64,000 nucleotides of DNA from Meghimatium bilineatum (GCA_034231615.1 CM067318.1:32753723-32817722); one strand, 5' to 3'; positions 20,201 through 34,998 are shown, numbered from the stretch's first letter. Notes: generated by a model not told the origin, from the sequence alone. Numbers and translations are program-made.

Positions 20201-22429
20201 TATTCACCGCAAGACGGGCACACATAATGATTACAAATCAGTCCCTCGTTCATGCACCAATCTAGAACAAATTTTTCTCCATTGGCACGCAAATTGATAA
20301 AGAAACTGAGATCCTGGGTGGTCATTTTTCACTGCTGAAACTGGGGTGCAAAGGGAACGCATCTAGGCGGACCCAGGGTTAGCAGATAACCAAGATCTCA
20401 AATGTACCTCCTCGCTGTGCACCCTGGAAACAGAAATACAGCAGCTCTAGCTGATTCTGGCCAAATCATATATGGATCGTGTCCGAGAAAGTGAAGGTAG
20501 CAGATGGAAAGAGATTTGACTGCATAAGAGACAGACAACATCTCAGACACCACCAGCATCACCACATATAGCGACACTGTCGATATACAGTGAAGCTAGT
20601 CAGTCCAGTCCGAACATTGGAGGGGCGACCAATGTAAAATGCACGTAAAGGTAGATGCATGGCGAGAGACAAATAAAATTCATACTGAGTACAATGAAAG
20701 AGCAGAACAGTGTTAGAGGGCGGCGCGAACTGCAAATAGAAAGTGAAAAGTTCCTAGGAAAGGGGAACTACAAGCTCCATCAGCTCGAGACGAGCTTCTA
20801 GTTACCTGTACTCCTTACAGACAGAGACCCAGACCCAATTATTGGCGTTCGGAAAAGCAAGAAGTCCTAACCCAACTCTAATGTCAAGCCTTCCTAAACC
20901 AAAAATATGCTCGCGAATAGAAAGGGTCCCATACCCGATGGGCTTAGGTACAACAGAGACAACGATTTTAGCCCTGGCCCAACTCTAATGTCAGGTTTTC
21001 CTATACCGGAAATACACTTGCAGAGAGAAATGGTTCAGTACCTGATGAGCTCAGGCGCTATTGGGACACGGTCGCTCAGCTCGAGAACGCCTTGCTCTCA
21101 AACGCATGGTGTGAGACTCGAACTTGGACAAGGGGTACACGATGTCAGTGAATTACACCTCGACTAAGAGAGCGAAAGAGCCAGGGTCCAACTCTTTTGA
21201 TGAGTTCTTCCCCTTAAGGAACAAGGCTCATGGATGAGAAACGGTTCAGTGCCCGATGGGCACAGGCACAGTACGTCCAATTACACAAGGCAAGTTCATA
21301 GACAGTGGAACACCTCGTACAAGACAGACGAGAGCAAAAATCATCTGGGCGAAGAGTCAATACATACACGCATGCCTGGTGACAGATATTGAGGCTGTCA
21401 CAGGCTAGGGTAGCCCACCCGAATTGTCAAGGCATGCCGAAATCGGATGTGCTAGGCCTACAAGGTGAATAATGGTGGCACAACCTAATCACGCTCCCGG
21501 CGGAAATCGCACGGATATCCGTGCTGGTTACAATGGAGCGAACGCAAAACAAACAAACAAACTGCTAAAACTTTACTAAACACTTTTGTTGCTGTTTTCA
21601 CTTTGCAATATCTGCGTAAAATAGACTCCTTTTTTCCGCTGACACTTGACCAAATCCAATTACACATGCGCCAACTTACCAGATCAATGCTCAACAACGT
21701 TGACTCAAGATTTATTTATTTTACAATATAAATAAATTTATAGTATACAATAGGAAAATGTACGAAATATAAAAATTAGAGGGGGGGGGATGCTGAATTT
21801 AAGTTATTTAAAAAAATATATATATAAACTAAAATCAGCACACCCCCCTCCCTTAGCGCCTGCTTGACCAACAGGACTCCAATGCCCACATTCTTGGTGG
21901 GTCCCATCCAGCAAGCTCAAATTCTCGATTCCAACCTCCAAGAACCAGCCAGCTGTGTATCAAATGTCCCCGCGAACCGTGATATCACAACTATTGAACT
22001 TTTCGAGGGAATTTAATGTCATTGGTGTTAGATACAAATCTGTGACGTCTGGTAGTTAAAAATGTGTAAACATTGTGTGCTATGTATATACTATATAATA
22101 GTATTATTATATAGTATAGTTACACATTATTAATTAATTATGACACAGTGAAGAGTTGATCTATATTTTTTACCGAAATTTATAGCCTTCGAAAAATTTT
22201 CTAAACATGATAATCCCAGATGTACTTATATATAATATTCTAACTTTTACTAAGTAAGTAAGTGTCATAATTAAATTAAATATAATAAAAAAAAACTACC
22301 TAGTACCTTGACAGCATCTTTTCCAAAACGAACTGCTTGTGATCCAAATCCTGATGCCTTTGTATCTTTTTGTCTCTCGTGATATGTATAAACAGTTCCT
22401 GCTGTGCAATTTCTCCCATGTCGAGTCAT
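2211..22429 (-). CDS. NOSIP: NOSIP orthologue, nitric oxide synthase-interacting protein (E3 ubiquitin ligase), nine coding exons
   Basis: Coding exons, in gene order: 22429-22307, 16452-16400, 14182-14071, 12323-12233, 9433-9297, 6506-6390, 5491-5421, 3027-2919, 2282-2211. Every intron starts GT and ends AG, phases agree, and the total is 885 nt (294 residues plus TGA), against about 300 residues for vertebrate NOSIP. Recognisable blocks: N-terminus MTRHGRNCTAGTVYTYHE; EFDCCSLTLQPCKDPVVT and DGHIYDKEAI of the split U-box; HQKKEIARKMKEYDRQR; LPSFWIPSLTP in the linker; CPMSGKSLKFKDLIPVKFTP, NRYVCAVTNDVLGN and MECVEKII in the C-terminal U-box half; C-terminus GFTGAGVTLEAKKPG. Known family role: ubiquitin ligase binding nitric oxide synthases and a spliceosomal protein, nuclear and cytoplasmic. 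Introns range from 636 to 5,854 bp and are rich in transposons, yet the frame is intact, so the gene is probably functional. The least conserved exon is number 4. Untranslated exons were not identified. Confidence 0.95.
2616..2862 (-). mobile_element. SINE family A, in NOSIP intron 8
   Basis: Same block order (CTACAGATTAGCAGGATGTA, GGGATGGGACAGCTAATCCC, GGTAACTGTTGCTATTCTG) with small deletions. It fills about 40% of the 636-bp intron. Confidence 0.8.
2919..3027 (-). CDS. NOSIP: NOSIP exon 8
   Basis: 109 nt after a CTTCAG acceptor; completes a Ser codon, then GAVVTMECVEKIIKTDMMDP and ISGKKLKEKDIIPLQR; donor GTAGGT, phase 0. Confidence 0.96.
4780..4885 (+). mobile_element. SINE family A, degraded 3' piece
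   Basis: Forward orientation: TGTAAACTATGACAATGCAT, CAGACTACATCCTG and GAGATTGAGAATGAACATAG. It is diverged but in the right order. Confidence 0.6.
5421..5491 (-). CDS. NOSIP: NOSIP exon 7
   Basis: 71 nt encoding NRYVCAVTNDVLGNSVPCAV and LRP plus two bases; donor GTAAGT. The acceptor region is tandemly duplicated just upstream (5484-5595). Confidence 0.96.
5484..5595 (-). repeat. 56-bp tandem duplication across the 3' splice site of NOSIP exon 7
   Basis: 5484-5539 and 5540-5595 are direct copies differing at one base seen (AAAATG versus AGAATG). On the gene strand each copy carries the CTTCAG acceptor and the first bases of exon 7, so a second acceptor lies 56 bp upstream of the real one. 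Using it would read AAT CGT TAG, a stop at the third codon. Confidence 0.9.
5962..6235 (-). mobile_element. SINE family A, in NOSIP intron 6
   Basis: CTCCTGCAGAGTAGCAGGATG, GAACGCATTGTGTCATGG, GACCCTATATTGGATG and GGTAAACAGTTTTGCTATTC in order. A 14-base C run (6206-6219) has grown where other copies have CTCCCCTC. Its 5' end lies about 150 bp upstream of the exon 6 donor region on the gene strand. Confidence 0.8.
6390..6506 (-). CDS. NOSIP: NOSIP exon 6
   Basis: 117 nt, 39 codons, phase 0 at both ends: DEKVRCPMSGKSLKFKDLIP, then VKFTPINDRDNQ and ...SKV; donor GTAAGT. It carries the CPMSGK...VKFTP motif of the second U-box half. Confidence 0.96.
6648..7122. repeat. 49-bp minisatellite (10 units) grown inside a SINE
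   Basis: Ten units beginning CACAATGTAGCCACAAGAG start at 6648, 6700, 6749, 6798, 6847, 6896, 6945, 6991, 7037 and 7086, spaced 46-52 bp. Each unit ends TGAACCATGGTTAAAAA(GTTCTT). The unit corresponds to the SINE-A stretch around the GTAGTCC...GAATGCATTG...CATGGTTT block. The SINE start (TTCTCAAACTTCTGCTGGTT) lies just before it at 6628. Confidence 0.92.
7129..7205. repeat. Dispersed repeat, inverted relative to 9165-9240
   Basis: GATTCTTGATTAGAAAACTG followed by GGGACATTCCCATAAGTGCT and CTCTCTGTTCC. The reverse complement of 9165-9240 gives the same order with few differences, so both are copies of one unnamed repeat family. Confidence 0.65.
7510..7705. repeat. Second block of the SINE-derived minisatellite
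   Basis: Three more complete units plus partial ones (CACAATGTAGCCACAAGAAA..., each ending CATGGTTAACAA). It is followed at 7710-7770 by the next part of SINE A (TTTTTGGCCAGAGACATATG and GACTTCAGCAC), so both blocks lie within one original SINE that has been split by 7123-7510. Confidence 0.85.
8041..8266 (+). mobile_element. LINE (RTE-like) ORF2 C-terminus and 3' tail
   Basis: Encodes TILQGTVEGGRSRGGQIKTW, then TDNIKEWTGLDISTLIRIAD and RIRWRTLCAEASN to a stop. This R(G/R)xRGxQxKxWxDNIKEWTG block is the usual end of RTE-type reverse transcriptases. A GATT-repeat tail follows at 8257-8271 (TTGATTGATTGATTT). Located in NOSIP intron 5. Confidence 0.75.
8590..8940 (-). mobile_element. LINE reverse-transcriptase C-terminal relic
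   Basis: Minus strand reads, with frame changes, HIKRQHIKWYAHIRQ..., RPATKT and WTTEIKEATN, the 'HIxR...IKW.GH..R...RPRGRPxKxWxxxIKE' end of a LINE ORF2. It is heavily decayed. Confidence 0.5.
9165..9240. repeat. Dispersed repeat, partner of 7129-7205
   Basis: GAGCAGAGTACTCATGGGAA...TTTTTTAATCAAGAATC, the inverse of 7129-7205. It ends about 55 bp from the exon 5 donor. Confidence 0.65.
9297..9433 (-). CDS. NOSIP: NOSIP exon 5
   Basis: 137 nt. Lysine-rich linker, then KELPSFWIPSLTPQADAT, the hallmark FWIPSLTP block of NOSIP; donor GTCAGT, phase 0. The acceptor is CAGCAG, so use of the second AG would drop one residue. Confidence 0.95.
9541..9806 (-). mobile_element. SINE family A, in NOSIP intron 4
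   Basis: TTCTCAAACTTCTGCTGATT, TTTACAGCTTTGCTGTGATA, ATGGGGCAGTCAACTC and TAACACACAGGCAAA in order, with the CTCTTACGAC block eroded. Confidence 0.75.
9950..10335 (-). mobile_element. SINE family B, long copy
   Basis: Shares the 3' module with family A (TTCATTCTCAAACTC and GTAGTCCAGAGAA) but has a different body: ATCTCTCTTGTAGCAGCATG, TTATTTGTGCCAATGCCCTG, then a distal part (TCAGAGGTATGCAGTGCTTT...GAGCCATGGTCACAGG) that recurs at 17360-17585 and around 14600-14760. Confidence 0.7.
11320..11592 (-). mobile_element. SINE family A, near full length
   Basis: GTCCTGCGGAGTAGAAGGATG, TGGTTTACAGCATTGCTGCG, ATGGGATGGGACAGCCAACT, GGTAAACAGTGTTGCGATTA and GGGCCCTGGAACACACAGGT in order. One of the best-preserved copies, in NOSIP intron 4. 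Confidence 0.85.
11850..12195 (-). mobile_element. RTE-like LINE reverse-transcriptase fragment
   Basis: Minus strand reads VMLPILFNVYTDRIIEETQN, then in other frames NIQIESKIIKQVKEFKFLGS and IFTEDGRLD. These match the LSPxLFNLYTDRxI and INGxxIxxVxxFxYLGSxITEDGR segments of RTE-type reverse transcriptases. It lacks the YADD part and has stops. It starts about 38 bp downstream of the exon 4 splice donor. Confidence 0.7.
12233..12323 (-). CDS. NOSIP: NOSIP exon 4
   Basis: 91 nt after a CCACAG acceptor, encoding KEASELARAEQEARGLKFAQ and then QESNPIGQKY plus one base; donor GTGAGT. It is the variable charged helix of NOSIP. The call rests on phase fit, splice sites and the EAR...F...ES pattern rather than on strong residue identity. 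A retrotransposon remnant begins only about 38 bp past the donor. Confidence 0.82.
12455..12590 (+). mobile_element. LINE ORF2 C-terminal scrap
   Basis: FCKVGGGWKKMTWLDNINLW then WCEVSKLCR: the 'KTWxDNIKxW' end of the same LINE class as 16555-16735, decayed. Confidence 0.55.
12775..12930 (-). mobile_element. SINE family B
   Basis: TTCTTCTTCGGCATTCATTC, CTCTCTTGTAGTAGGACACC, CAGGATGTAGTCCAGAGAAT, GTTGCACCAATGGCCAGACA. In NOSIP intron 3. Confidence 0.75.
13700..13990 (+). mobile_element. SINE family B, rearranged
   Basis: Forward: GGCCATTGGTGCAAACAAGA, CATTCTCTAGACTATACCC, CCTGCTACAAGAGAGATCCA and AGAATGAAC to 13841. The distal family-B part follows (CTGAGAGTTGCACTCTTCTAG near 13907) in an order unlike the 9950 copy. 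Confidence 0.6.
14071..14182 (-). CDS. NOSIP: NOSIP exon 3
   Basis: 112 nt after a TTTCAG acceptor. The first base completes a Thr codon, then EDGHIYDKEAILKNIIHQKK and on to ...RQRTKLE; donor GTTAGT, phase 0. It matches the NOSIP segment that follows DPVVT. Confidence 0.95.
14438..14780. mobile_element. SINE family B pieces in both orientations
   Basis: 14440-14535 reads forward (TTGGAACAAATAAAACTGCT, TTCCGTTCTCTGGACTACAC, GTCTGCTACAAGAGATATG). 14600-14760 matches the distal family-B part in the other orientation (TTCATACCCAGAAGGTTTCA, CTACTCTGAGGGTATA). Confidence 0.5.
14930..15095 (-). mobile_element. SINE family B, well preserved
   Basis: TTCTTCTTCAGCGTTCATTC, ATTTCTTGTAGCAAGACCAT, AGGATGTAGTCCAGAGAATG, ATGCGCCAATGGTCTGACAT. 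The TTCTTC start is the reverse of a GAA-repeat tail. In NOSIP intron 2. Confidence 0.8.
15362..15667 (-). other. Unidentified open segment, 101 codons
   Basis: Open on the minus strand, with CTQKKHWANDRRTLFKFLSE and LNDVGNIDGENVVVFKDTVY among its residues. I do not recognise a family. It is inside NOSIP intron 2 between SINE and 1.2-kb element relics, so a transposon gene remnant is more likely than a host exon. Confidence 0.3.
15808..16090 (-). mobile_element. Diverged old relative of the 1.2-kb element (5' part)
   Basis: Aligns by eye with roughly the first 300 bp of the element in reverse, including CAGGGTGCACC near 16019, GATCTTGGTTATCTGCTAA at 16047 and GGGTCCGACGAGCAATGC at 16070. Many substitutions and indels indicate a much older insertion in NOSIP intron 2, so the family has been active over a long time. 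Confidence 0.7.
16105..16283 (+). mobile_element. SINE family A, 3' half
   Basis: Forward: GTCCTATCCCATTTAGGATC, GCTGAAGTCAGATGTCTCAG, TATAAACCATGACGCAAAGT, CAGACTGCATCTTGCCAATC and GAGAACGAATGCAAAAGAA. It starts about 100 bp upstream of exon 2 in + coordinates. Confidence 0.75.
16400..16452 (-). CDS. NOSIP: NOSIP exon 2
   Basis: 53 nt after a CAG acceptor; encodes EFDCCSLTLQPCKDPVV plus two bases of the next codon, then a GTAAGT donor. This is the first cysteine-containing half of the split U-box. Confidence 0.95.
16530..16735 (-). mobile_element. LINE (RTE-like) ORF2 C-terminus
   Basis: Minus strand shows the same tail end as 8041: KKTWLDNVKDWTRCEVFKL-like, IRMVEDRD, then a Lys-Asn-Leu stretch and GGGTTATGGGTTTT. 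In-frame changes make it dead. Confidence 0.6.
17340..17590 (-). mobile_element. SINE family B, distal part
   Basis: Aligns with 10100-10330: GTGCAATGCTTTGAGAAGCC, CTTCTCTACCTTTCCGTAAC, TCAAGCATCTTTTTCTGTTA, CTAGACCATGGTAACTGGGA, CATTCCCTACCATGCAAG. In NOSIP intron 1. Confidence 0.6.
17600..19340. other. Intron 1 AT-rich stretch
   Basis: Contains one SINE A copy (18018-18225) and a 14-base G run (18936-18949) next to TAAGGGTTAGG. A TAATCCCTAACCCTAGG stretch at 18346 is telomere-like only by chance length. No coding sequence recognised. Confidence 0.55.
18018..18225 (-). mobile_element. SINE family A, truncated
   Basis: CTTCTTCTGCATTCGTTCTC, AGGATGTGGTCCAGGGAAGA, TGTGTCATGGTTTAAAGC, TTAGTCACCTCTTACAACA in order. 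It ends in the central block. Confidence 0.75.
19353..19516. repeat. Subterminal repeats of the Merlin relic
   Basis: Two direct ~68-bp copies (19353-19419 and 19420-19488) share TTCCTTGGCGGATA and ATATGTGGCGGA-like ends. They are followed at 19500-19516 by TTCCGCCACATATATTC, the inverse of the copy end. Such structure is typical near DNA-transposon termini. The matching far end was not found. Confidence 0.6.
19555..20325 (-). pseudogene. Merlin-superfamily (IS1016/ISXO2-like) transposase relic
   Basis: Read on the minus strand from about 20325 across several frames. It shows an N-terminal ANGEKFVLDWCMNEGLICNH zinc-ribbon-like part with CPSCG; then VVEIDESMFGKRKYYTGDMY (first catalytic Asp); WVFGLVDRGSNKC; IVSDCWRAYSCLKDKGYTH (second Asp); and THTNTIEGLWGSH (the Glu). 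That is the DDE order and spacing of Merlin elements. Reading moves between frames several times, so it is dead. It lies in NOSIP intron 1, with the 1.2-kb element inserted just upstream. A possible start of the original element lies beyond 21573. Confidence 0.85.
20343..21560 (+). mobile_element. 1.2-kb (AAAC)n-tailed element, copy 2 (full length, inside a Merlin relic)
   Basis: 1,218 bp, starting GGGGTGCAAAGGGAACGC and ending in an (AAAC)n tail. Flanked by 12-bp duplications ACTGCTGAAACT (20331-20342) and ACTGCTAAAACT (21561-21572), one mismatch. It sits in NOSIP intron 1 immediately upstream of the Merlin transposase frame. No long reading frame and no terminal inverted repeats were seen; the tail and target duplication imply retroposition by a LINE. 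It contains internal ~110-bp direct repeats. Confidence 0.9.
21573..22306. other. Intron 1 proximal segment, low information
   Basis: 21573-21700 may be the 5' part of the Merlin element (open on the minus strand, no recognisable domain). The rest is AT-rich intron with a G run at 21781-21789 and TATATA tracts. No gene was recognised. Confidence 0.45.
22307..22429 (-). CDS. NOSIP: NOSIP exon 1 (start codon)
   Basis: 123 nt, 41 codons, starting with ATG on the minus strand at 22429. It encodes MTRHGRNCTAG..., the near-invariant NOSIP N-terminus, and ends ...FGKDAVK before a GTACTA donor, phase 0. The strong match to the family start fixes the initiator. Confidence 0.95.
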
Positions 22430-23300
22430 TATTAGTTTTTCTTAGTGTTCAAATAATTAAAAAGAATGCATGAAGTAGGTTCTACTACACAGTAAAATTG
22501 TCAGAATTCTTATTGAAAAGTAATATTAGACCGGAAGTTAGTGACAAGGTTTACTAAATTTATATTCAAAAGAGTTAGCACTGATTCCGTATTGTAAGAA
22601 TGTTGTTGATTTCAGATGATTGGGCCCCTGTCTCCCGATGTGTACTCTGTCCCTGTCGACAGAGCAGTAGGAAGTCTTTAAAGAGTACCGCAGAGTTCTT
22701 AACTTCGTAGCGCGCTAGACAAGTCCCATGGATATCAGAAAAACTATATATCTATATTTCTTCCGCACCGAATATGATGCTTAGACTTAGAACAGAAAGA
22801 AGAACAGTGCTCCTCATTTTGAGCGATACAATGCTGGTGTAGTTCTTGTATTTTGTTAAGACCATTATTCTTATCCTCTTTGATAGCTGTACTACGTGGA
22901 GTTTCTCTTTGTATCCTTCTCTTTATTTTGCCATCTAGAACCTATTTTAGCGTTCTTTGGTTTTACATAAACTACTAGAACGAAGACACAATTTAGTATT
23001 TCTACTTCACTGCATTAGATTCCACAAACATAGAGTAGATTTAAAAGATCACTACCAATATAATAACAATCCATATCGAATAGCTAAAGTGCTTGGCTAT
23101 GATATGCTAATAGATATACTAAACTAAACAATTTATCACCAATACAAAAACCTTAATTGATCTAACTTTAATAAACTGCCGACGAAAGAATGGACAGAGA
23201 TAGAGACAAGAATTGTCAAATGTAATTATGAACTTACAACAGTCTTGAAACAAATCTATCCCGATGGAAACCAAAAGGCAAATCATAAGTTAATTCTTTA
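22430..23300. other. 5' flank of NOSIP
   Basis: Holds the presumed promoter and 5' UTR of NOSIP, but no TATA box, initiator or first untranslated exon could be assigned. A slightly GC-richer stretch (22618-22735, TGGGCCCCTGTCTCCCGATG onwards) is the most promoter-like part. No divergent gene recognised. Confidence 0.35.
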
Positions 23301-23324
23301 TACCAACATTGTCCGTCGAAATTG

Positions 23325-23468
23325 ATGTGTTGGACCATTGGCGCAAATAAAACGGCGTCACAATGCATTTCAATTCTCTGAACTACATCCTGCTGGAAAT
23401 TTAATAGGGCCATTGTCCTGCTACATCCAGCGTGAGTTTTTGAATGAACGCTGAAGAAGAAGATACCA
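23325..23468 (+). mobile_element. SINE family B
   Basis: GGACCATTGGCGCAAATAAA, CAATGCATTTCAATTCTCTG, ACATCCTGCTGGAAATTTAA and GAATGAACGCTGAAGAAGAA. It ends in a GAA-rich tail. Confidence 0.78.
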
Positions 23469-23679
23469 AAAATTGTGTTATCAGTGTCAGACATGAACAC
23501 TAACTAAATAACAAGAGAAAATCAAAAGGTAGTATAAGGGATTTGAACCAGGTCTGTTCAGCTGCCATCAATTAGCCTCGAAACTTGTTTCAAAACGATT
23601 TTCTAATTCGACCACACATCATCTCTAACAGACAATGTTTACTACGTGTAAAATGATATATCTAAGAAAAGCAGCAGAC

Positions 23680-23970
23680 AGAACACGAAGAAATCATGTG
23701 AAGAATGAAAAGATTACAAACATCTGTGGTCAGATATATTGAAATGGTTCTGCCACTTAATGGGAATGAATCGACAGTGATTATTATAAAGAATAAACTA
23801 TGCAAATGGAAACATCAAGAGATAGAGGAGGACCAAGACGACCCTAGATTAAAGGAGTTACCAACATATGCGACATAACTGCATATCAAAGATAAACATG
23901 TCATTGCTAGAAAACCGATCGTCACTAAATCATGCGACGACTTACAACAAAAGCAGATAAAAGACAATAG
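23680..23970 (+). mobile_element. LINE ORF2 C-terminal relic
   Basis: Conceptual reading shows RTRRNHVKNEKITNICG, a WKHQEIEEDQDDPRLKE-like stretch and a lysine-rich end, matching the 'IRNExIRxxxxxxDI...W.GHLMRM...RPRxRW' end of LINE ORF2 proteins. Several stops. Confidence 0.5.
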
Positions 23971-24185
23971 ATAGAAAGATAGTCAACTGACGGACATAAT
24001 AACAAGATATGGCTTACAAATGAATCTTCTTATTCCTTCAGTCCTCCTGTACCTTTCGGTGTTGAGAGGAGAGTGAGTGTACGGTCTTTTGCCCTTCTAT
24101 TTGCCTCTTCCGCTGTTATATTTCCGAGTGTCTCTAATACACTAGCTGTCTAGAACAATTGTAAGAAAGAATAAGCTATTAGATC

Positions 24186-24260
24186 TTCCTCTTCTCCGTT
24201 CGTACTCAAACTCCTGAAAATTATCATAATGTAGTCCGGAGAACCGAATCCTGCCCTGAG
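24186..24260 (-). mobile_element. SINE tail fragment
   Basis: CTTCTCCGTTCGTACTCAAA, CTCCTGAAAATTATCATAAT, GTAGTCCGGAGAACCGAAT: the shared 3' module of families A and B. Confidence 0.65.
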
Positions 24261-24360
24261 CAAACAAAAGTAATGGCTTTTAGTTGGAAATGGGTAAAAT
24301 GAGCTCGGTGACCCACGGTTGAGTTGATTGATTGATAAATAGTGAATCATCATTATATAT

Positions 24361-24425
24361 AAGTCTACAATTTAAGTCTTTATTTTTTCTATAAGGCGAA
24401 AAAAAGTGTACATTGTCAAAAAATG
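24361..24425 (+). repeat. Single dispersed monomer of the ~68-bp satellite
   Basis: AAGTCTACAATTTAAGTCTT, TTCTATAAGGCGAAAAAAAG and TGTACATTGTCAAA match one monomer of the array that starts at 34999. A (GATT)n tract like that of RTE tails lies just before it (24323-24336). Confidence 0.85.
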
Positions 24426-24540
24426 TCAAAAAGAATTTTGTCAAAGTCCGCATACAGAAACAGTACAATTTCATTTAGCTGTCGTTGTGTTGAGATAACT
24501 GCGCATTTCGTCCTGATATCCGATTTCTTATTTTTTTAAT

Positions 24541-24775
24541 TTTTCTTCGTGTGCGTTCGTTCTCAAACTCTTGCAGATTACCAGGACGTAGTCCGAAGAA
24601 TGGAGTGCATTCTGACCCTTGTACTTTGTTTCGTTATTTTGTCTCTTCATCGAGCCCATTCTTATAAGATGTAATAACGTATTATTTCTTACACTTATTC
24701 TAAAACTTCTCTCAGGACTCACATTTCCTGGTGACAGGCAGGAGTTTGAGAAGCTTAATCTAATTTTTATTGCAC
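24541..24775. repeat. Duplicated segment, copy 1
   Basis: Starts with a SINE tail (TGTGCGTTCGTTCTCAAACT) and continues through TTCGTTATTTTG, ATTTCTTACACTTATTCTAA and CAGGAGTTTGAGAAGCTTAA. The same order recurs at 25207-25435 with substitutions. Confidence 0.7.
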
Positions 24776-24789
24776 GTTTTAAAAAAAAA

Positions 24790-24892
24790 TTCACTCACGC
24801 TGTGTCACGGTTTACAGCATTGCTGCGACATATGCAGCTTTTGGCCTGATACATCCGACTTCAGCATGGATTTCAATCACTTTGACGCATTC
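24790..24892 (-). mobile_element. SINE family A, left arm of an inverted pair
   Basis: GTGTCACGGTTTACAGCATT, CTTTTGGCCTGATACATCCG and ACTTCAGCATGG in reverse orientation, about 45 bp from the forward copy at 24938. Confidence 0.8.
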
Positions 24893-24937
24893 CCGAAAAC
24901 GGAGACTAGCTCGTTATCCATTTGTCTCCTACTGCGT

Positions 24938-25147
24938 GAGCAAAGAATAGCAACACTGTTTACCTTCCATGTATGTCGTAAGAGGCGACTAAGGAGGTTA
25001 TGGTATAGAGTTGGCTGCCCCATCCCAGATAGGGTCAGCGACCCAAAGCCATGCTCAAGTCGGATGTGTCAGGACGAAATGTGCAGATATCGCAACAATG
25101 CTGTAAACCACGACACAACGCTTTCCGTTCTCCGGACTAAATTATGA
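24938..25147 (+). mobile_element. SINE family A, right arm of an inverted pair
   Basis: Forward: GAATAGCAACACTGTTTACC, TATGTCGTAAGAGGCGACTA, GTTGGCTGCCCCATCCCAGA, TCAAGTCGGATGTGTCAGGA, ACAATGCTGTAAACCACGAC, CGTTCTCCGGACTAAATTA. It is one of the least-decayed copies and is cut before the GAA tail. Confidence 0.85.
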
Positions 25148-25206
25148 TAATCTGCATCTAACTTTAGATTCTAAATTTATTATTCTAAATTTATTTTACA
25201 ATGTTT

Positions 25207-25435
25207 CATGTGCGTTCGTTCTCAAACTCCTGCAGATTAGCACGATGCAATCTGGAGAATGGAATGCTTCCTCGCCTCTGTACTGTTTTCGTTATTTTGG
25301 GTATCGTCATTGGATCAGATATAAGTTCTAATAGCATATTCTTTCTTACACTCATTTTAAACTGATAAATCGCTGTCTGGAATACCTGCTGCTGATATGC
25401 AGCCAGCAGTTTGAAATGCTAAATTGTAATTTTTA
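25207..25435. repeat. Duplicated segment, copy 2
   Basis: TGTGCGTTCGTTCTCAAACT, CAGATTAGCACGATGCAATC, TTTTCGTTATTTTG, ATTCTTTCTTACACTCATTT and CAGCAGTTTGAAATGCTAAA parallel 24541-24775. Roughly 670 bp apart, direct orientation. Confidence 0.7.
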
Positions 25436-25439
25436 TGGT

Positions 25440-25914
25440 TGATAAAAGGGTACCTCATGATTTAGAAACGATGATTAATATGCAACAATTTTTTTTAAAA
25501 TACATGTTCATCATTTCTGAGCTTAATACTCTAGTAATATTCAGTAAACAAAGTTTTAAAAATGGAATTCATTAAATGACTTAGTAGATGATTGAAGTCT
25601 CGTCCTTCTTTGTCTGATTTGGTTTGATATTATTACATTTTGAATTTTGGTGTTCCAATTTCCACAAAACACAGGCTTTGTGTGTCACAGATGCTTCTTT
25701 TCAAAATCATTTTATGACAACGAGTCTAAGCAAAGATTATACTAGAATCGTGTCTTTTAACACTGCAAATTATCATTAAACACCCGAGCAAAGTGCCCCA
25801 ACCTTTGCTTCCACAAGAAAGATGATGGCACCGATCGATTTGGCATAGTCAAAAACCACATTCCGCTAATTTTCATAACTATACCATACACCTAACTCGA
25901 GGCGAGCTATATAG
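25440..25914. other. AT-rich stretch without recognised features
   Basis: Nothing coding or repetitive was recognised between the duplicated segment and the dispersed satellite-like copy. Confidence 0.5.
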
Positions 25915-26124
25915 AAGGAATCAAGAAATATACCATACTCCATCCAATACTAAATCCTTGCCTCTATAACGTTAAGATAGCACGCGGAGTTAGCCTGTTA
26001 ACTCTTGCTTGGAACTTAGTATATATGGTGCGAACTCCCGATAAAATCGGCGAGCTGATATTTCTAATGTTAAACAGCGTGCGTCTAGTCTCCGCCGGCT
26101 GAGCGTAGCGAACAAGGCAAGTGT
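25915..26124 (-). repeat. Isolated relative of the ~612/520-bp satellite
   Basis: The reverse complement reads CTTGCCTTGTTCGCTACGCT, CAGCCGGCGGAGACTAGACG, GATTTTATCGGGAGTTCGCA, AGAGTTAACAGGCTAACTCC, TATCTTAACGTTATAGAGGC, AAGGATTTAGTATTGGATGG and AGTATGGTATATTTCTTGAT. This is the order of the short-type monomers at 52.4-53.1 and 63.3-64.0 kb. It directly abuts a LINE ORF1 relic at 26125. Confidence 0.9.
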
Positions 26125-26129
26125 GCCTC

Positions 26130-27456
26130 ATTTTGTTTACTGATCAGATTTGTCAGGAGTTGTTTTATTTCTGACATTTCTTGATTGGCATTTAAAATCC
26201 ATCTACCTATGTCCTTCTTTTCTTCTTTCCTTTTTTTCTTTCCTTTGGGCTTCTTCTATTATTGTTTTCCTGTTGGTTTGATTATATTTTCTTAAGGAGA
26301 CCTTCTGTATCTTTTTAAATTCCGCATAGTTTCGCTATGTCATTTTCAATTTTATTTGGAAATTTCTTGAAGTTTAGTTATTTCCTCTGTTTTGCTAATT
26401 TGGTTAGTTTTTTGTGTGTTTTTGGTTGTTGTTATGGTCAGCAGTTTGGAAATTTCTCCAGGGTTGTTAATTGCTGTTATTATTTTAATTGGGCTTTTCA
26501 ACTCATGTCTGGCTTTGAGGTAGGCTGGACAACCCAAGTAGCGAGCTCTATGATTTCCCGTGCAATCTGCGCATTTTCTGTTTATGTTTTTTTCCTGATA
26601 ATTGTTGTCCTTTTTGGGCCAGAGGACATGATGCTAGGGTATGTGCTCCTGCGCAGTTTCTATATTTAATACTGTTTCGGCATCCAGCCCTGGTATGTCC
26701 ATACTGTTGACATTTGGAGCATTGCCTAACTTCAGGTATATACATTTCTGGGTTTTTTTGTTGTGTTTAGGAATTTTAGCGTTTTAGCTGTTTTTCCTGT
26801 ACAGGAAACCTCTACTGCTATTGTAGCATTGTTATTTTTCTATCCTGCTTGCCTTGATACATTGGATGGGATTTTCTTTATTTAGTATCTCTTTTATCCT
26901 TTCATGAGAGATGTCTTTCCTAATCCCTTTTATCACCATTTTTGTGGTTTTTCCTACCAGTTCTGTTTTTACTATTATCTGATGAGGCTGGGAGGTAGTA
27001 TCTTTATTTCTTTGAATGTTACATGCCACTTTTCTTCCTTCTATGCTGTTGGTGATTGTAACTATTATACATTCTTGGTATTTAAGTATACCATGGATGG
27101 TGGCCTTCCCTGTTATGGGGACGAGAAGTTCTTTTATAATTTTGTATGGTAGGGCCTTCAGTGACGCTTCCTGTCCTATTTTTATTTTAATATGGGCTTG
27201 ACTTTGGTCGGTATTTTGTTCCCTTCTTTTTGGTGTTATCTTTCGGCTTTGATATTGTCGTTAAATTAGCCGTGTGTGGTGCCTTTTTCTGAGATGGCTC
27301 TTTGATGGCATCAGCACATGACTTACTTAAATTGTGTGACATTGTGAATTTTGAATAGTGTTTCTTACTTAAATTGTGTGACATTGTGAATTTTGAATAG
27401 TGTTTCTTACCCTTGGTTATCTTTCCGGGACACGTGCTCTTGGGCCTTGAATACAC
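26130..27456 (-). pseudogene. LINE ORF1 (Gag-like, zinc-knuckle) relic
   Basis: Minus strand, from ATG at 27456, with frame breaks. A lysine-rich N-terminus (KPKDNTKKKGTKYRPKSS) contains a 45-bp tandem duplication (27317-27412; KKHYSKFTMSHNLS twice). Then comes an RNA-binding-like segment (KMVIKGIRKDISHERIKEIL), then CSKCQQYGHTRAGC, a CX2CX4HX4C knuckle near 26720. A second CRNCAGAH-type knuckle and GCPAYLKARHEL follow, and a C-terminal helix ends ...KQLLTNLISKQN. This order is that of ORF1 from I/Jockey-type LINEs, which binds RNA. It might belong to the family of the LINE at 30350, but they are not linked here. Confidence 0.75.
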
Positions 27457-27459
27457 ACA

Positions 27460-27935
27460 ATTATTCTATGTTGGAATTCTATCTCCTATTTCTACCTATC
27501 GAGAACATTTGCCTGCTATTATTATTCACTAATATATACTAAATGATTACCTCCTATTACTACACTACTTGTTATCTACAACTACGTTTCTACACAGTTA
27601 TTATAATGCTATCACTTTAAAATTTAACACAATTATACTAACACTTACTATTATATCTTGATTATACGTTTTTAAATATCAGCTAGCACTTCTATCTAAA
27701 TTTTATATTACTCTTTTATATATAATATCTAATCCTGTTCTATAAATTTTAGCACTTCTAATATATACAAATTTGAATACTTATTCTACACTTGCTAGCG
27801 CGTGACAGCAATTTCCAAATATTGTGGTTTAAGAATTTTGTTTGAGTCTTTCTCTTCTTTCTTCCATATCTTTAAAAATATTAAAGAGTTTAAGCCGTGT
27901 TTTCCCAGATTTTCGGGACTATGAAAACGCCTTGA
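27460..27935. other. AT-rich stretch upstream of the ORF1 relic
   Basis: Could include the 5' UTR of that LINE. No features recognised. Confidence 0.4.
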
Positions 27936-27937
27936 GA

Positions 27938-28010
27938 GCCGCGTAGCGCAGTGGTTAGAGCATTGGCTTCGCATATGAGTGTTCCTGGGTTTATTCCCCA
28001 GTTGAGGCGG
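27938..28010 (+). tRNA. tRNA-Arg(TCG)-like sequence, probably a SINE head or pseudogene
   Basis: A box TAGCGCAGTGG at 27944 matches the consensus. The anticodon region is GGCTTCGCATATGAG with TCG in loop position. The B box is GGGTTTATTCC with mismatches to GGTTCGANTCC, and the acceptor strands CCGC/GCGG pair poorly. The decayed B box and imperfect stems argue against a working tRNA. A reverse-transcriptase fragment follows at once. Confidence 0.5.
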
Positions 28011-28020
28011 ACATTTTTTA

Positions 28021-28138
28021 GTGAAAGGAGACGCTATTATAACAATAAATACAATAGAAGAAGACCTAAAACCAAACATCCTGAAATCCGAAAGTGAAGA
28101 CGAAGTTAAACATGCACCAAATAGCAAAGCACCAGGAA
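28021..28138 (+). mobile_element. LINE reverse-transcriptase N-terminal fragment
   Basis: Encodes NTIEEDLKPNILKSESEDEV then KHAPNSKAPG, matching the 'Ex.EVxxAI..LKNxKAPGxD' start of LINE RT domains. It is cut exactly at KAPG by the tail of 1.2-kb element copy 3, and its continuation is not present on the other side. Confidence 0.6.
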
Positions 28139-29475
28139 TGTTTGTTTGTTTGTTTTTCGTTCGCTCCATTGTAACCATCACGGATATCCGTGCGATTTCC
28201 GCCGGGAGCGTGATTACGTTGTGCCACCGTTATGCGCCTTGTAGGCCTAGCACATCCGATTTCGGCATGCCTTGACAATTCGGGTGGGCTACCCTTAGCC
28301 TGTGACAGCCTCTATATCTGTCTCCAGGCAGGCGTAGTGGCGACTCTTCGCCCAGACGATTTTTGCTCTCGTCTGAATCGCACGAGGTGTTCCACTGTCT
28401 ATGAACTTGCCTCGTGTAATTGGGCGTGCTGTGCCTGTGCCCATTGGGTACCGAACCGTTTCTCATCCGTGAGCCTGGTTCCTTAAGGGGAAGAACTCAA
28501 CAGAGGAGTTGGACCCTGGCTCTTTCGCCCTCTTAGCCGAGGTGTCGTTCACCGACATCGTGTACCCCTTGTCCAAGTTCGAGTCTCACACCACGCGTTT
28601 GAGAGCAAGGCGTTCTCGAGCTGAGCGTTCTTGTCCCAATAGCGCCTGAGCCTATCAGGTACTGAACCCTTTCTCTCTTCAAGTGTATTTCCGGTGTAGG
28701 AAAACCTGACAGTAGAGTTGGGCCAGGGCTAAATCGTTGTCCCTTTTGTGCCAGAGCCCATCGGGTACGGAACCCTTTCTCTGTGCAAGTGTACTTCCGT
28801 TATAGGAAACCTTGACAGTAGAGTTGGGCCAGGACTACCATCGTTGTCCCTTTCTTGCCTAAGCCCATCGGGTACAGAACCCATTCTCTTCGCGAGCATA
28901 TTTCCGGTACAGGAAGGCTCGACATAAGAGTTGGGTTAGGTCTTCTTGCTTTACCAAACGCCAATGGATGGGTCTGGGTCTCTGCCTGTAAGGAACACAG
29001 GTAACTAGAAGCTCGTCTCGAGCTGACGGAGCTTGTAGTTCCCCTTTCCTAGGGACTTTTCACTTTCTATTTGCAGTTCACGCTGCCCTCTAGCGCTGTT
29101 CTGCCCTTTCATTGTTTCATTGTACTCGGTATGAAATATATTTGTCTCTCGCCACGCATCTACCTTTACGTGCATTTTACATTGGCCGCCCCTCCAATGT
29201 TCGGACTGGACTGACTAGCTTCACTGTATGTCGACAGTGTCGCTATATGTGGTGATGCTGGTGGTGTCGGAGATATTGTCTGTCTCTTGTGCAGGCAAAT
29301 ATCTTTCCATCTGCTACCTCCACATTCTCGGACACGATCCCCAAATGATTTGGCCAGAATCATCTCGAGCTGCTGTATTTCTGTTTCCAGGGTGCACCGC
29401 GTGGAGGTACATTTGGGATCTTGGTTACCTGCTAATCCTGGGTCCGCCTAGAGCAATGCGTTCCCTTTGCACCCC
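28139..29475 (-). mobile_element. 1.2-kb (AAAC)n-tailed element, copy 3 (long form)
   Basis: Complete copy in reverse orientation: tail at 28139 (TGTTTGTTTGTTTG), 5' end at 29475 (...CTTTGCACCCC). It is about 117 bp longer than copies 2 and 4 because it has one more internal ~110-bp unit (repeats across roughly 28640-28930). No target duplication is seen: the tail side abuts a reverse-transcriptase fragment ending ...SKAPG and the other side reads GTCAATAATATAAG. Confidence 0.9.
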
Positions 29476-30198
<723 letters not shown>

Positions 30199-30352
30199 TA
30201 AATATAAACATGCATCCACATAAACACTTTCTCACATAAATAAAAACATTAACATGAACATTCGCACACATAGAAACATAAACATATATTAATATAAATA
30301 TAAACGTTCGTTCACATAAAGATAATGAACAGCATGTCAGCTGGAAGTATAT

Positions 30353-32265
30353 ATGGAAAGGGCAGAATACCAGATGCTCCACCTAAAAACAGACAGTGCA
30401 GAATTCCATCTCCTGAACTACTACTGCCCAAATGATAAACCATTGGCACTAGACATAATTCCAGACAAAGAGAGACTTATGGTGTGTGGTGACTTCAACA
30501 GCCACTCTCAGAGCTGGGGCTACGATCATATCGACAAGAGAGGTGAGGAACTTGAGAGCTGGCAGGATGAAAATAATCTCATCCTTATTAACCAGCCAGC
30601 AGACTCGCCAACCTTCTACTCGAGAGCATGGCACACCACCTCTACACCAGACGTGGCATTCCACTCACCAGGCTTGGAATGGAACATCACACGTGTTGCT
30701 GGAAAGCAGCTTGGAGGTAGTGACCACAGACCAGTATTTCTGGAAATCCACAATGAATTTACCAAGGACAGCAGCACGCTCACTAGGTGGAACTATAAAA
30801 GGGCAGACTGGAAAATGTACCAGCATTTAACCAGTGTTCTAGCTAAGGACATGAACTTGGACAAAGACATCAATAGAGCAGTGAGTGAATTTAATAGATA
30901 TATACTACATGCTGCTAGTAAAACAATACCCAGGGGGGCACGCAAAAACTACAAACCCTACTGGAATGATGAACTGGAAAAGCTGCAAAATGAGATGGAA
31001 ACATCTAGACAGCAGGCTGAGAACAGACCTAGCCAAGAACATCACAAAAAATATCAGGAAACAAAGGCTAAATTTCAAAGAGCCAAGTTACAAGCCAGAC
31101 GGAGTAGCTGGAAAGAAAAAACAGAGTCGCTGAACCTAGAAAGAGATACTAGGAAATTATGGAAACTTGTAAAACAACTAAATGATGATGGTACAGGGAG
31201 AAATACCAGGATCACACTTTATAAAGATAGAAACATTTTAACAGGTAAACATGCAGCTGATTACTTTGCAGATTCCTTTGCAGAAGACAATAACATCAAA
31301 GTCAGCCCAGACAAACAACAGGAGGTTCGAGAGAACCAGCAAAACATTGGACAAGGCGAACCTATACCTGAAGTCATGGAGGCACCAATCACAATGAGAG
31401 AACTGGAGCATGCAATATCCAAATTGAAAATGAAAAAGTCCCCTGGAGCTGATGGAGTGTCCAATGAAATGATTAGAAACCTGGGAATTGCAGCAAGAGC
31501 AAAGCTACTGCAGATCTTTAACACAAGCTGGTCCACAGGTAATGTACCACAGGCGTGGAGAGAAGCAATAATGATACCACTCCTCAAATCAGGAAAATAT
31601 GGCAACACAGTCTCCAACTACAGGCCCATCAGCCTCACAAGCTGTCTATGTAAAACAATGGAACGCATTATCAATCTTAGGATGCAGTGGTACCTTGAAA
31701 GTGAAAACCTTCTGGTATCACAGCAAGCAGGTTTCAGACAGTGCTACTCTACTGAAGATCAGGCAACCTACCTCTCCAAAGAGATTGAGGATGCCTTCCA
31801 AGAAAAGAAACTGGCACTAGCAGCATGGATAGACCTCAGGAAAGCATTTGATAAGGTCTGGAAAGAAGGGCTCCTAAAGAAATTGCGAAATTGCAGGGTT
31901 AGCTCAAGAATGTACAAATGGGTAAAAGCATACCTGCATAATAGAAGAGCCAGGGTACAATTAGATGGTCGCAAGAGCAAGAAAGTTCTACTGCGTCATG
32001 GAGTCCCCCAGGGAGGAGTCCTGTCACCCACACTTTTCTTGGTTTACATCAATGACCTAGTTGCTGAACTACCACACGGGATCAAAGTGGCAATGTATGC
32101 TGACGACCTGGTGATCTGGTGCACGGAAGAACATGCAACAGTGGCCACTAAACAAATACAAAGAGCTATCGATGCCCTAACCTTATGGGCAAATAGATGG
32201 TGCGTCAGCATTAACACAGATAAGTGCAGCACTACACTCTTTACCCTCTCACCAAAGCTGGTCAT
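30353..32265 (+). pseudogene. LINE ORF2 part 1: endonuclease remnant and reverse transcriptase
   Basis: About 636 open codons. The endonuclease end includes GDFNSHSQSWG (residues 46-56), SPTFYSR, STPDVAF and GGSDHRPVF (121-129). Reverse-transcriptase blocks: KSPGADG (362-368), YRPISLTSCLCKTMERII, QAGFRQ, WIDLRKAFDKVW, GVPQGGVLSPTLF (550-562) and the catalytic YADDLVIW (582-589). Endonuclease nicks the target and RT copies LINE RNA. The first residues of the endonuclease are absent, so the start at 30353 is simply the first Met after truncation. The frame is lost near 32262. Confidence 0.9.
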
Positions 32266-32597
32266 ATCAAGATAGATGGAGAGCTCTTGAAAGAAGACAA
32301 ACAACCCACATACCTCGGAGTTACTTTTGATGATAAGCTGACATGGAAGCAACACATAAACAAAGCAACAACAAAAGCCAGGAGGAAGCTAGCTATCCTG
32401 AGAAAACTAAGTGGAACCACATGGGGAGCCAGTGGAAATATACTCAGTAAAGTTTACCAGCAAGGCATAAGACCACACCTGGAATATGGTTCAGCTGCGT
32501 GGTGTCCTGCATCGAACACCACATTACAAGATCTAGATAAAGTGCAAAACCAGGCACTTAGAATAATGTTGGGAGCAATGAAATCAACACCCATAGC
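32262..32597 (+). pseudogene. LINE ORF2 part 2: RT thumb/connection, after a frameshift
   Basis: Continues the same protein in another frame: GHIKIDGELLKEDKQPTYLG, then VTFDDKLTWKQHI and GIRPHLEYGSAAW. These are the 'YLGVxLDxxLTWxxHI' and 'YGSxAW' motifs that normally follow RT. A single indel explains the break. The segment ends at ...KSTPIA where copy 4 of the 1.2-kb element sits. Confidence 0.88.
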
Positions 32598-33817
32598 GGG
32601 GTGCAAAGGGAACGCATTGCTCTAGGCGGACCCAGGGTTAGCAGATAACGAAGATCCCAAATGTACCTCCACGCGGTGCACCCTGGAAACAGAAATACAG
32701 CAGCTCGAGCTGATTCTGGCCAAATCATTTGGGGATCGTGTCCGAGAATGTGGAGGTAGCAGATGGAAAGAGATTTGCCTGCACAAGAGACAGACATATC
32801 TCCGACACCACCAGCATCACCACATATAGCGACACTGTCGACATACAGTGAAGCTAGTCAGTCCAGTCCGAACATTGGAGGGGCGGCCAATGTAAAATGC
32901 ACGTAAAGGTAGATGCATGGCGAGAGACATAGATTTCATACCGAGTACAATGAAACAATGAAAGGGCAGAACAGCGCTAGAGGGCAGCGCGAACTGCAAG
33001 TAGAAAGTTAAAAGTCCCTAGGAAAGGGGAACTACAAGCTCCGTCAGCTCGAGACGAGTTTCTAGTTACCTGTGTTCCTTACAGGCAGAGACCCAGACCC
33101 ATCCATTGGCGTTTGGTAAAGCAAGAAGACCTAACCCAACTCTTATGTCGAGCCTTCCTGTACCGGAAATATGATCACGAAGAGAAAGGGTTCCGTAATC
33201 GATGCGCTCAGGCACAAAAGGGACAACGATTTAGCCCTGGCCCAACTCTACTGTCAGGTTTTCCTACACCGGAAATATACTTGAAGAGAGAAAGGGTTCA
33301 GTACCTGATGGGCTCAGGCGCTATTGGGACAAGGACGCTCAGCTCGAGAACGCCTTGCTCTCAAACGCGTGGTGTGAGACTCGAACTTGGACAAGGGGTA
33401 CACGATGTCGGTGAATGACACCTCGGCTAAGAGGGCGAAAGAGCCAGGGTCCAACTCCTCTGTTGAGTTCTTCCCCTTAAGGAACCAGGCTCATGGATGA
33501 GAAACGGTTCAGTACCCAATGGGCACAGGCACAGCACGTCCAATTACACGAGGCAAGTTCATAGACAGTGGAACACCTCGTTCGAGTGAGACGAGAGCAA
33601 GAAAATCGTCTGGGCGAAGAGTCCTCACCACGCGTGCCTGGAGACAGATATAGAGGCTGTCACAGGCTAAGGGTAGCCCACCCGAATTGTCAAGGCATGC
33701 CGAAATCGGATGTGCTATGCCTACAAGGCGATAACGGTGGCACAACGTAATCACGCTCCCGGCGGAAATCGCACGGATATCCGTGATGGTTACAATGGAT
33801 GAAAAACAAACAAACAA
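32598..33817 (+). mobile_element. 1.2-kb (AAAC)n-tailed element, copy 4 (full length, inside a LINE)
   Basis: 1,220 bp with 5' end GGGGTGCAAAGGGAACGC and tail GAAAAACAAACAAAC. Exact 12-bp target duplication AACACCCATAGC at 32586-32597 and 33818-33829. It interrupts the RT-RNase H frame of a LINE between the residues ...STPIA and EMQKM. Element plus one duplication (1,232 bp) shifts the frame, and skipping it makes the two halves collinear, so it inserted after the LINE did. Confidence 0.95.
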
Positions 33818-34964
33818 AACACCCATAGCAGAGATGCAGAAAATGGGAAGAAAACTTGGCGAACGCAGAGACACAAAAGTACTAATTCAAGCAGAAAAGT
33901 TTCAGTGTATGCCAAGTCATCCAATGAAGGAAAGATTCCAAAATCTAGCAATGGGGCAACTGAAAAGGAGCAGCTTTATCCATCAAGCTAAACGACTCCG
34001 TAGACAACTTAGAGACCTACCTGAAGTTGACAGCCCCTTAAGGTCTGTACCAGAACAAACCCCGTGGAATGAAAGCCATGGAATGCCAATATACATTCAG
34101 ACCCATGTGAAAGGAATACTAAGCGAGGACGAACAGAACAGTGTGCAGCGAATGACAGTCACCCTCAGTTTCCTGGATGAGGAATATCCACAAGATATAT
34201 GGGTCAGAGTGTACACAGATGGGTCAGCACAGAATGCTGTGAGGAATGGAGGTGCAGGTGTATATATAGAATATCCACACAAGCCTAGAGATACAATCAG
34301 AACACCGACAGGAAAATTCTGCAATAATTATTATGCAGAAATCCAGGCAATTAGTGTGGCAGCTAAAAAACTGCTGAACTCCAACTCTGGCCTACAGCCT
34401 GTGGTATTCCTGACAGATGCAAGGTCAGTGCTTCAAGCTCTCCAGTCTGGAAAACTAACAGACTTAAAAAAACTACTTAGCGAATTGTCTTACCAGTATA
34501 GGGTAACCATGCAGTGGATACCCTATCACTGTGGAATACCAGGAAATGAAAAAGCAGACCAACTGGCTAAGGAAGGTGCTGCCGAAGACCAACCAGATAT
34601 ACCAATCACCTACCATCAGAAAAAACAGATGATCAAGTCAATAAGAAAGCCACAAACACCAACACAAGATGACTATCACATTATGAACAGATCAGAACAA
34701 GTTATAATTCTACGTCTCAGAACAGGACACAACCGACTCCGCAGTCACATGTATACAAAGTTCAAGATTGGCAACACGGCCATGTGTACATGTGGACAGG
34801 CAGCACAGAGTGCCAAACATATACTTCAAGAGTGTTCTGAGCATGAAACGCTGAGGCAGACATATTGGCCAGAGGAAACAACACTGGAATCAAAGCTCTA
34901 TGGGACACTGTATGAACTACAAAAGACAGTGAGTTTTATTAAGGAGACAGAATTACAGATATAG
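33818..34964 (+). pseudogene. LINE ORF2 part 3: RNase H and C-terminal zinc motif
   Basis: Resumes the LINE protein after the insertion (TPIAEMQKMGRKLGER). The RNase H fold has YTDGSAQNA (first Asp, about 34218), YYAEIQAI (Glu), FLTDARSVLQAL (Asp), then WIPYHCGIPGNEKADQLAKE (final Asp). All four catalytic acids are present. The C-X-C...H-X4-C motif and stop at 34962 follow. RNase H removes RNA from the hybrid during reverse transcription. This part has no stop or frameshift. Confidence 0.92.
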
Positions 34965-34998
34965 ACATGTTTCAAGTGAACGAAAGAAGAAGAAGAAG

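What the first reader, a model, noticed from the sequence alone, without database searches (positions are those of the whole stretch)
20331..33829. A 1.2-kb non-coding element with 12-bp target duplications, (AAAC)n tail and intact 5' ends
Three complete copies (20343, 28139, 32598) begin at the same GGGGTGCAAAGGGAACGC, and two have 12-bp target duplications (one exact, one with a single mismatch). A fourth is cut by the window edge and an old relative lies at 15808. It has no long reading frame, LTR or inverted repeat. LINE-made copies are usually 5'-truncated, yet every copy whose 5' end is visible is complete. At 1.2 kb it is far longer than a normal SINE. I know no family like it.
Basis: partly seen in the sequence, partly recalled or inferred. 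Interest (0 to 1): 0.8.

Follow-up and report, generated by a model that had tools for sequence, protein, structure and literature searches.

The report
Non-coding retroelement with ribozyme-like front
The repeat is a non-coding jumping element, present thousands of times in this animal genome, whose front end has the layout of a known kind of self-cutting RNA, which may be why most copies start at the same base.

Summary
The host assembly holds 7,355 exact matches to one 32-mer of it. In 35 full copies read, a target duplication abuts base 1. From 100 listed intact 3' ends on one contig I estimate that about 79% reach base 1.

Element bases 1-140 have the layout of an HDV-like self-cleaving ribozyme, with predicted cleavage at the TSD-defined start. 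Rfam's drz-agam-1 aligns there below its cut-off. An older family shares little but this 5' module (83% in majority sequences), with P1 and P3 unchanged and P2 changed on both sides at two pairs.

Best reading: a long SIDE-like non-autonomous retroposon, moved by an unidentified LINE, whose ribozyme trims the RNA 5' end. Against it: catalysis untested, plain folding does not favour the core, and R2 elements cut at their own 5' end have variable junctions. The kind is known (R2 SIDEs, NARTc/RIME/SIDER); the dispersed, high-copy, modular animal form did not appear in my literature listings.

The parts
32598..33817 (+). Complete element copy A
   Evidence: TSD 12/12
32586..32597 (.). Target duplication (5') of copy A
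33818..33829 (.). Target duplication (3') of copy A
20343..21560 (+). Complete element copy B (90% to A); its ribozyme core carries changes in P3 and P2 and does not pass the descriptor
20331..20342 (.). Target duplication (5') of copy B; partner 21561-21572, 11/12
28139..29475 (-). Complete element copy C, with an extra ~107-bp body unit; no target duplication found
1..226 (+). 3' part of a further copy, cut by the window edge
14550..16104 (-). Old-family copy (approximate limits), 5' end decayed, with another repeat inserted
32598..32604 (+). P1 5' strand GGGGTGC; predicted cleavage just before 32598
32605..32652 (+). J1/2, 48 nt, predicted to fold into small hairpins
32653..32663 (+). P2 5' strand GATCCCAAATG
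32665..32677 (+). P3 and L3: ACC-TCCACGC-GGT
32678..32686 (+). P1 3' strand GCACCCT followed by GG of P1.1
32690..32718 (+). P4 hairpin CAGAA...TTCTG
32719..32725 (+). J4/2 GCCAAAT, holds the presumed catalytic C
32726..32737 (+). P2 3' strand CATTTGGGGATC
28644..28935 (-). ~107-bp tandem units of the element body (2.7 copies in copy C)
33772..33785 (+). 3' hairpin CACGGATATCCGTG
33802..33817 (+). (AAAC)n tail

Best explanation
It is a non-autonomous, non-coding non-LTR retroposon of about 1.2-1.3 kb, built from a 5' HDV-like self-cleaving ribozyme, a body with a variable number of ~107-bp units, a 3' stem-loop and an (AAAC)n tail. Its RNA, whether made from an outside promoter or an inner one, is cut by the ribozyme just before base 1. 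This removes any upstream leader and leaves a compact 5' end. A LINE reverse transcriptase, not identified, copies it by target-primed reverse transcription from the tail, usually to the very end, giving copies with one exact 5' end and target duplications mostly of 10-13 bp. Shown: anatomy, copy number, fixed 5' end, TSDs, and conservation of the 5' module between an old and a young family with compensating changes in P2. Inferred: self-cleavage, the source of transcription, the LINE partner, and that the ribozyme is the cause of the exact ends.
For: (1) The parts of an HDV-like ribozyme are present in order: P1 7 bp with G.U at the cut, J1/2, P2 11 bp with one bulge, P3 3 bp, L3 UCCACGC, P1.1 CC:GG, P4, J4/2 GCCAAAU. 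(2) A descriptor of this fold hits only two places on both strands of the window, copies A and C, each at its first base, and 1 place in 20 random windows of the same dinucleotide make-up. In the 69 loci then scanned it hits 33 element 5' ends and 1 other place in 485 kb of strand. (3) Rfam drz-agam-1 aligns at A (23.3 bits; E 0.058 in a 1.3-kb search, 2.8 in the whole window), at C (26 bits, E 0.58) and at L002 and L016 (24.2 bits, E 0.73). (4) Old and young majority sequences differ at 22 of 158 columns: 0 of 14 in P1, 0 of 6 in P3, and P2 changed on both sides at two pairs. Both pass the descriptor, while 40 of 2000 and 24 of 2000 copies randomly mutated at rate 0.147 do. (5) On 40 rows 87.0% of pair cells are paired, against 33.8-47.3% with partners slid, and the covariation score is highest for the structure itself. 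(6) 30 of 30 old loci match the young majority in its first 300 nt, 1 of 30 in the middle and 2 of 30 in the last 216 nt. (7) 35 of 35 full copies have a TSD abutting base 1.
Against: Rfam scores lie below the cut-off of 37 bits; 6 of the 8 loci given, five old and one young, gave no such match. The genome-wide RF01787 search found nothing, though it rang in none of its 14 controls and scored 56 of 79,616 candidates. Plain RNA folding gives z = -0.20 and prefers another nested fold; on 140 nt that fold has -38.4 kcal/mol against -32.7 with P2-P3-P4 kept, P1 not counted. Single copies often fail the descriptor: 23 of 24 old and 7 of 16 young rows. I wrote the descriptor after seeing the motif. 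The covariation rests on two family-level events, one of which needs a shift of the bulge and is not counted; there two of five measures do not exceed shuffles (69/500, 91/500), the structure slid by -1 has more cells with both sides changed (24 against 20), and one P4 pair is broken in 17 of 39 rows. In R2, species that cut at the element's own 5' end have variable 5' junctions and uniform ones go with cutting upstream (PMC3774820, abstract); HDV ribozyme templates often gave slightly truncated insertions (PMC11331408, passages). Here cutting at base 1 and uniform junctions would go together. No LINE with the same 3' end was found.
Confidence: 0.75

Rival explanations
1. A long SINE or SVA-like retroposon whose fixed 5' end is simply the start of transcription; the ribozyme likeness is chance or a relic.
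For: The body holds ~107-bp units in varying number, as in VNTR composites. 1.2 kb is short enough for reverse transcription to finish often (inference). Nested folding does not favour the core. R2 cut at its own 5' end has variable junctions (PMC3774820, abstract), these copies do not.
Against: No tRNA in the window and no tRNA, 5S or 7SL match in copy A at E up to 10; a TTTT run at 768 of the majority sequence would hinder Pol III. The ribozyme module is the part kept between families, and P1 begins exactly at base 1.
Confidence: 0.17
2. By origin, an internally deleted or 3' part of an autonomous LINE that is still present in the genome (this does not exclude the best explanation).
For: R2 SIDEs and, by their authors, NARTc and RIME arose that way (PMC3414825, abstract and Discussion; PMC4035085, passages). 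Seven of nine incomplete 3' ends read share only the last 134 bases or fewer with the element, so a LINE sharing just that stretch is not excluded.
Against: All 46 matches to the last 60 bases in the loci held then carry the element body upstream, though those loci were chosen by likeness to the element. Eight of the nine incomplete ends have a target duplication by eye and no LINE sequence between it and the element part. The old family is also ~1.45 kb and non-coding. The one LINE copy fetched, RTE-like, ends in (TGA)n.
Confidence: 0.2
3. A DNA transposon or LTR-derived element.
For: Most copies are complete and of one of two lengths.
Against: The ends are not repeats of each other, TSDs vary in length and the tail is (AAAC)n of varying length.
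Confidence: 0.01

Closest known systems
R2 SIDEs and R2/R1 hybrid SIDEs of Drosophila (PMC3414825; abstract and Discussion read)
   Same: Non-coding, HDV-like ribozyme at the 5' end, LINE-dependent, 14-bp TSDs in the hybrid class, 5' and 3' parts from different elements
   Different: Those lie in 28S genes, are rare, and derive visibly from R2/R1; this one is dispersed, at thousands of copies, with body repeats and no known parent
NARTc, RIME and SIDER retroposons of trypanosomatids (PMC4035085; passages read)
   Same: Non-coding retroposons with a 5' HDV-like ribozyme module; abundant and dispersed
   Different: Protists; another module (Pr77, 77 nt, also a promoter); the autonomous relatives L1Tc and ingi are known
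drz-agam-1, Rfam RF01787 (HDV-like ribozyme)
   Same: Core ACCUCC-N-CG-N-GGU and J4/2 align
   Different: Score below the gathering cut-off; J1/2 is 48 nt here. HDV-like ribozymes with a structured domain between P1 and P2 are described (PMC4908430, passages read)
Animal retrozymes (PMC7229834; passages read)
   Same: Non-autonomous non-LTR elements with a self-cleaving ribozyme
   Different: Hammerhead type, about 170-400 nt, circular RNA; no hammerhead match in copy A
SVA/LAVA (recalled; one paper seen in the listing)
   Same: Composite non-coding retroposon with tandem units
   Different: I recall no ribozyme there; not checked

Membership tests
HDV-like ribozyme | Nested double pseudoknot P1-P2-P3-P1.1-P4 in fixed order | tested here: met
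   sequence and pairing only. 9 of 16 young and 1 of 24 old rows pass the strict descriptor; both majority sequences do
HDV-like ribozyme | Catalytic C in J4/2 (rule CNRA, recalled) | tested here: met
   GCCAAAT in copy A; the majority reads CCAA in both families
HDV-like ribozyme | Rfam curated score reached | tested here: not met
   23.3-26 bits against 37 for RF01787
HDV-like ribozyme | Self-cleavage before the first base of P1 | not testable with these tools
   needs in vitro transcription
SIDE / NART-type retroposon | Non-coding, 5' ribozyme, LINE-type TSDs and tail | tested here: met
   (ribozyme by structure only)
SIDE / NART-type retroposon | 5' and 3' ends shared with an autonomous LINE | tested here: inconclusive
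   none seen among sampled loci; genome not fully searched
SINE | Pol III promoter from tRNA, 5S or 7SL RNA | tested here: not met
   Box-like strings occur in the majority sequence: on the plus strand only with one mismatch (three B-like, four A-like), on the antisense strand one exact B-like and one A-like with a mismatch
SINE | Length under about 600 bp (recalled) | tested here: not met
   33 of 35 full copies are 1202-1213 or 1315-1320 bp before the tail
Retrozyme | Hammerhead ribozyme | tested here: not met
   no Rfam hammerhead match in copy A at E up to 10

The most novel reading that the evidence does not exclude
A class of ribozyme-headed retroposons not tied to one LINE or one body: the 5' HDV-like module is the part carried from an old to a young family, while body and 3' end are exchanged. 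The ribozyme frees the element from needing its own promoter and sets its exact end.
Probability: 0.4. Interest if true: 0.75.

Novelty: new variant of a known kind. Interest (0 to 1): 0.6.

Why it matters
If the ribozyme works, this is a dispersed, high-copy animal counterpart of SIDEs, with thousands of natural copies of one ribozyme and two age layers. It lets one test whether 5' self-cleavage makes full-length insertion the rule, against what is reported for R2 cut at its own end, and whether a 5' module can outlive its body and LINE partner.

Tried and rejected
Led nowhere: Rfam RF01787 genome-wide (uninformative); LINE partner through RVT_1 (150 scored hits of 82,272 candidates; the one copy fetched, ends in (TGA)n); a relaxed descriptor on that LINE (four weak hits, none near its 5' end). 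A 3' query of the window LINE did not complete. The (GAA)n tail in the old relative was first taken for the family's own; it belongs to another inserted repeat. Seven paper searches listed 10-25 papers each, titles and starts of abstracts; apart from R2 SIDEs and retrozymes these showed no animal element of this description. The library is limited, and the JBC 2011 paper on ribozymes in non-LTR elements (cited in PMC4908430) is not held.

Not done: no eukaryotic repeat library and no related animal genome were available.

Full report
Observation. Copy A (32598-33817) matches 20343-21560 at 90%, 28139-29475 on the minus strand at 93-94%, a 3' piece at 1-226, and an older relative at 15816-16087 minus at 72%. 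Copies A and B have 12-bp target duplications, 12/12 and 11/12; I found none for copy C. Copy A lies inside a LINE: endonuclease and reverse transcriptase domains before it, RNase H after it.

Copy number and 5' ends. The window lies in an assembly of 1.61 Gb in 32 contigs. Exact 32-mers number 5,837 for the 5' end, 6,239 and 7,355 for two neighbouring 32-mers near base 1200 and 6,982 for the 3' end. Of 30 loci ranked by the last 200 bp, copy A itself among them, 28 reach base 1 or 2 and two start inside. For a sample not ranked by likeness I took the 100 exact 3' ends listed, all on contig C1: 53 have an exact 5' 32-mer upstream, 51 of them at 1151-1298 bases and two nearer. Of the other 47 I fetched 20: 11 reach base 1 (one of them base 2) with a change within the 32-mer, 9 do not. 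That gives an estimate of about 79% complete (53 plus 11/20 of 47).

Full copies. Of 37 loci, copy A among them, 35 hold a full copy, and a target duplication abuts the first base in 35 of 35, allowing one mismatch; L012 and L030 lie in simple repeats, L024 and L025 look like one duplicated insertion, and L002-L008 had been picked for full-length likeness. 33 of 35 are 1202-1213 or 1315-1320 bases before the tail; the difference is about one ~107-bp unit. They lie 0.7-4.7% from their majority sequence.

The incomplete copies. The 9 incomplete ones were read further: five begin at base 1205-1208, the others at 1183, 1261, 463 and 633; by eye, eight of nine have a target duplication. The step from 7,355 to 6,239 exact 32-mers across that point agrees with a discrete short class, though 32-mers may differ in how well they are kept. 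I have no explanation for it.

The 5' end is built like an HDV-like ribozyme. Bases 1-7 GGGGUGC pair with 81-87 GCACCCU, with G.U at the first pair; P2 is 56-66 with 129-140, with one bulge; P3 is ACC/GGU with loop UCCACGC; CC of that loop can pair with GG after P1 (P1.1); P4 is CAGAA/UUCUG; the joint before P2 reads GCCAAAU. The rules for P1.1, the G.U and the J4/2 motif are in part recalled; the papers I saw name the double pseudoknot, P1.1, cleavage at the first base of P1, and the catalytic C in J4/2 (PMC4908430 and PMC11331408, passages). Rfam's drz-agam-1 aligns to the same core at 23.3 bits in copy A (E 0.058 for 1.3 kb; 2.8 for the window), 26 bits in copy C (E 0.58) and 24.2 bits in L002 and L016, below the cut-off of 37. 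Of the 8 loci given, five old and one young gave no such match. A descriptor of the fold finds, on both strands of the window, only copies A and C, each at its first base, and once in 20 random windows of the same dinucleotide make-up. I wrote it after seeing the motif.

Test by an older family. The relative led to 30 older loci, itself included; the other 29 are 71-75% like it. They are about 1.45 kb and non-coding (longest frame 124 codons in the majority of 11 copies), and their ends often read like (CAAA)n, though not in every copy. Against the young majority they match in the first 300 bases in 30 of 30 loci, in the middle in 1 of 30 and in the last 216 bases in 2 of 30. The middle match and one of the two 3' matches are L066, where the piece tested is a copy of an intermediate type; the other, L060 at 94%, is a young copy by its identity. 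The two majority sequences agree at 83% over bases 1-253; beyond that there are a 23-base match and one weak 83-base match (70%, E 5e-4).

Between the two majority sequences P1 (14 columns) and P3 (6 columns) do not change. P2 changes on both sides at two pairs (C-G against T-A, with a shift of the bulge; T-A against A-T) and on one side at another. Both satisfy the descriptor, while random substitution at rate 0.147 keeps it in 40 or 24 of 2000 trials, started from hand-typed versions of the two. Pair counts on 40 rows: 87.0% paired against 85.6% in shuffles and 33.8-47.3% with slid partners; the covariation score and the cells with both sides changed exceed all 500 shuffles; pairs with both sides changed and further pair types do not (69 and 91 of 500). 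Slid by -1 the structure has 24 such cells against 20, and slid versions have 7-12 pairs changed on both sides against 7; one P4 pair is broken in 17 of 39 rows. The rows were those with the core readable from its start: 24 old copies, from 30 loci, and 16 young ones picked to be distinct. Single old copies mostly no longer fit the descriptor (1 of 24; young 9 of 16), as one expects of dead copies.

Against. The best fold without pseudoknots is another one, and no better than shuffles (z -0.20). HDV-like ribozymes can be trapped in other folds, and the J1/2 of R2 ribozymes can be long and structured (PMC11331408, passages). Self-cleavage was not tested. In R2, species that cut at the element's own 5' end have variable 5' junctions, while uniform junctions go with cutting upstream (PMC3774820, abstract). 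So a cut at base 1 does not by itself explain uniform junctions; the way the second strand starts must differ here, which is open.

How it would work. In R2 the HDV-like ribozyme frees the element RNA from a co-transcript (PMC3774820, abstract and two sections), and such a structure at the 5' end of a template improves insertion by R2 protein (PMC11331408, passages). Here the same logic fits one exact start, no leader carried over in 35 copies, and a high share of complete copies. The majority 3' end folds as a stem around CACGGATATCCGTG before the tail, a plausible handle for a LINE protein. No LINE carrying this end was found: 46 of 46 matches to the last 60 bases in the loci then held carry the element body, but those loci had been chosen by likeness to the element.

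Place among the known. It works like a SIDE or NART. Membership is met for the non-coding body, TSDs, tail and ribozyme layout, and not settled for descent from a LINE. It is not a SINE by promoter or length, and not a retrozyme by ribozyme type. I rate it a new variant of a known kind.

Noticed in passing
L091, L092, L093, L096, L099 (last ~110 bases of the element): Five of nine incomplete copies are insertions with target duplications that begin within 4 bases of each other (consensus 1205-1208), as if a short RNA or a reverse-transcription stop made a discrete ~110-nt form.
   Followed up: partly
34998-48989: A 14-kb array of 68-bp units (about 212 copies, related units on to 49242) begins about 30 bases after the stop codon of the LINE at 30329-34964.
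   Followed up: no
53191-55461: A tandem array of 50-bp units, with a related short array at 49295-49485 and a 499-bp tandem repeat (2.5 copies) at 51923-53183.
   Followed up: no
about 14880-15080 (minus strand): Another repeat, ending GAGAATGAACGCTGAAGAAGAAG, lies inside the old element copy; a similar end occurs in L059 and before 16303 on the plus strand.
   Followed up: partly
young majority sequence, antisense strand positions 379 and 421: An A-box-like (1 mismatch) and an exact B-box-like string 42 bases apart on the antisense strand of the element; no tRNA was found in the window.
   Followed up: no
L069: An RTE-like LINE with an open frame of 1026 codons and a (TGA)n end. The 150 scored RVT_1 hits lie within 4 bits of each other; whether they are one family was not checked.
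   Followed up: partly
L070 (G000:C2:121989805-121990428): A nuclear copy of part of mitochondrial COX1 with five TGA codons in frame; mollusc-like by recall.
   Followed up: partly
L035: A young copy inserted in the P2 region of another copy of the same element.
   Followed up: no
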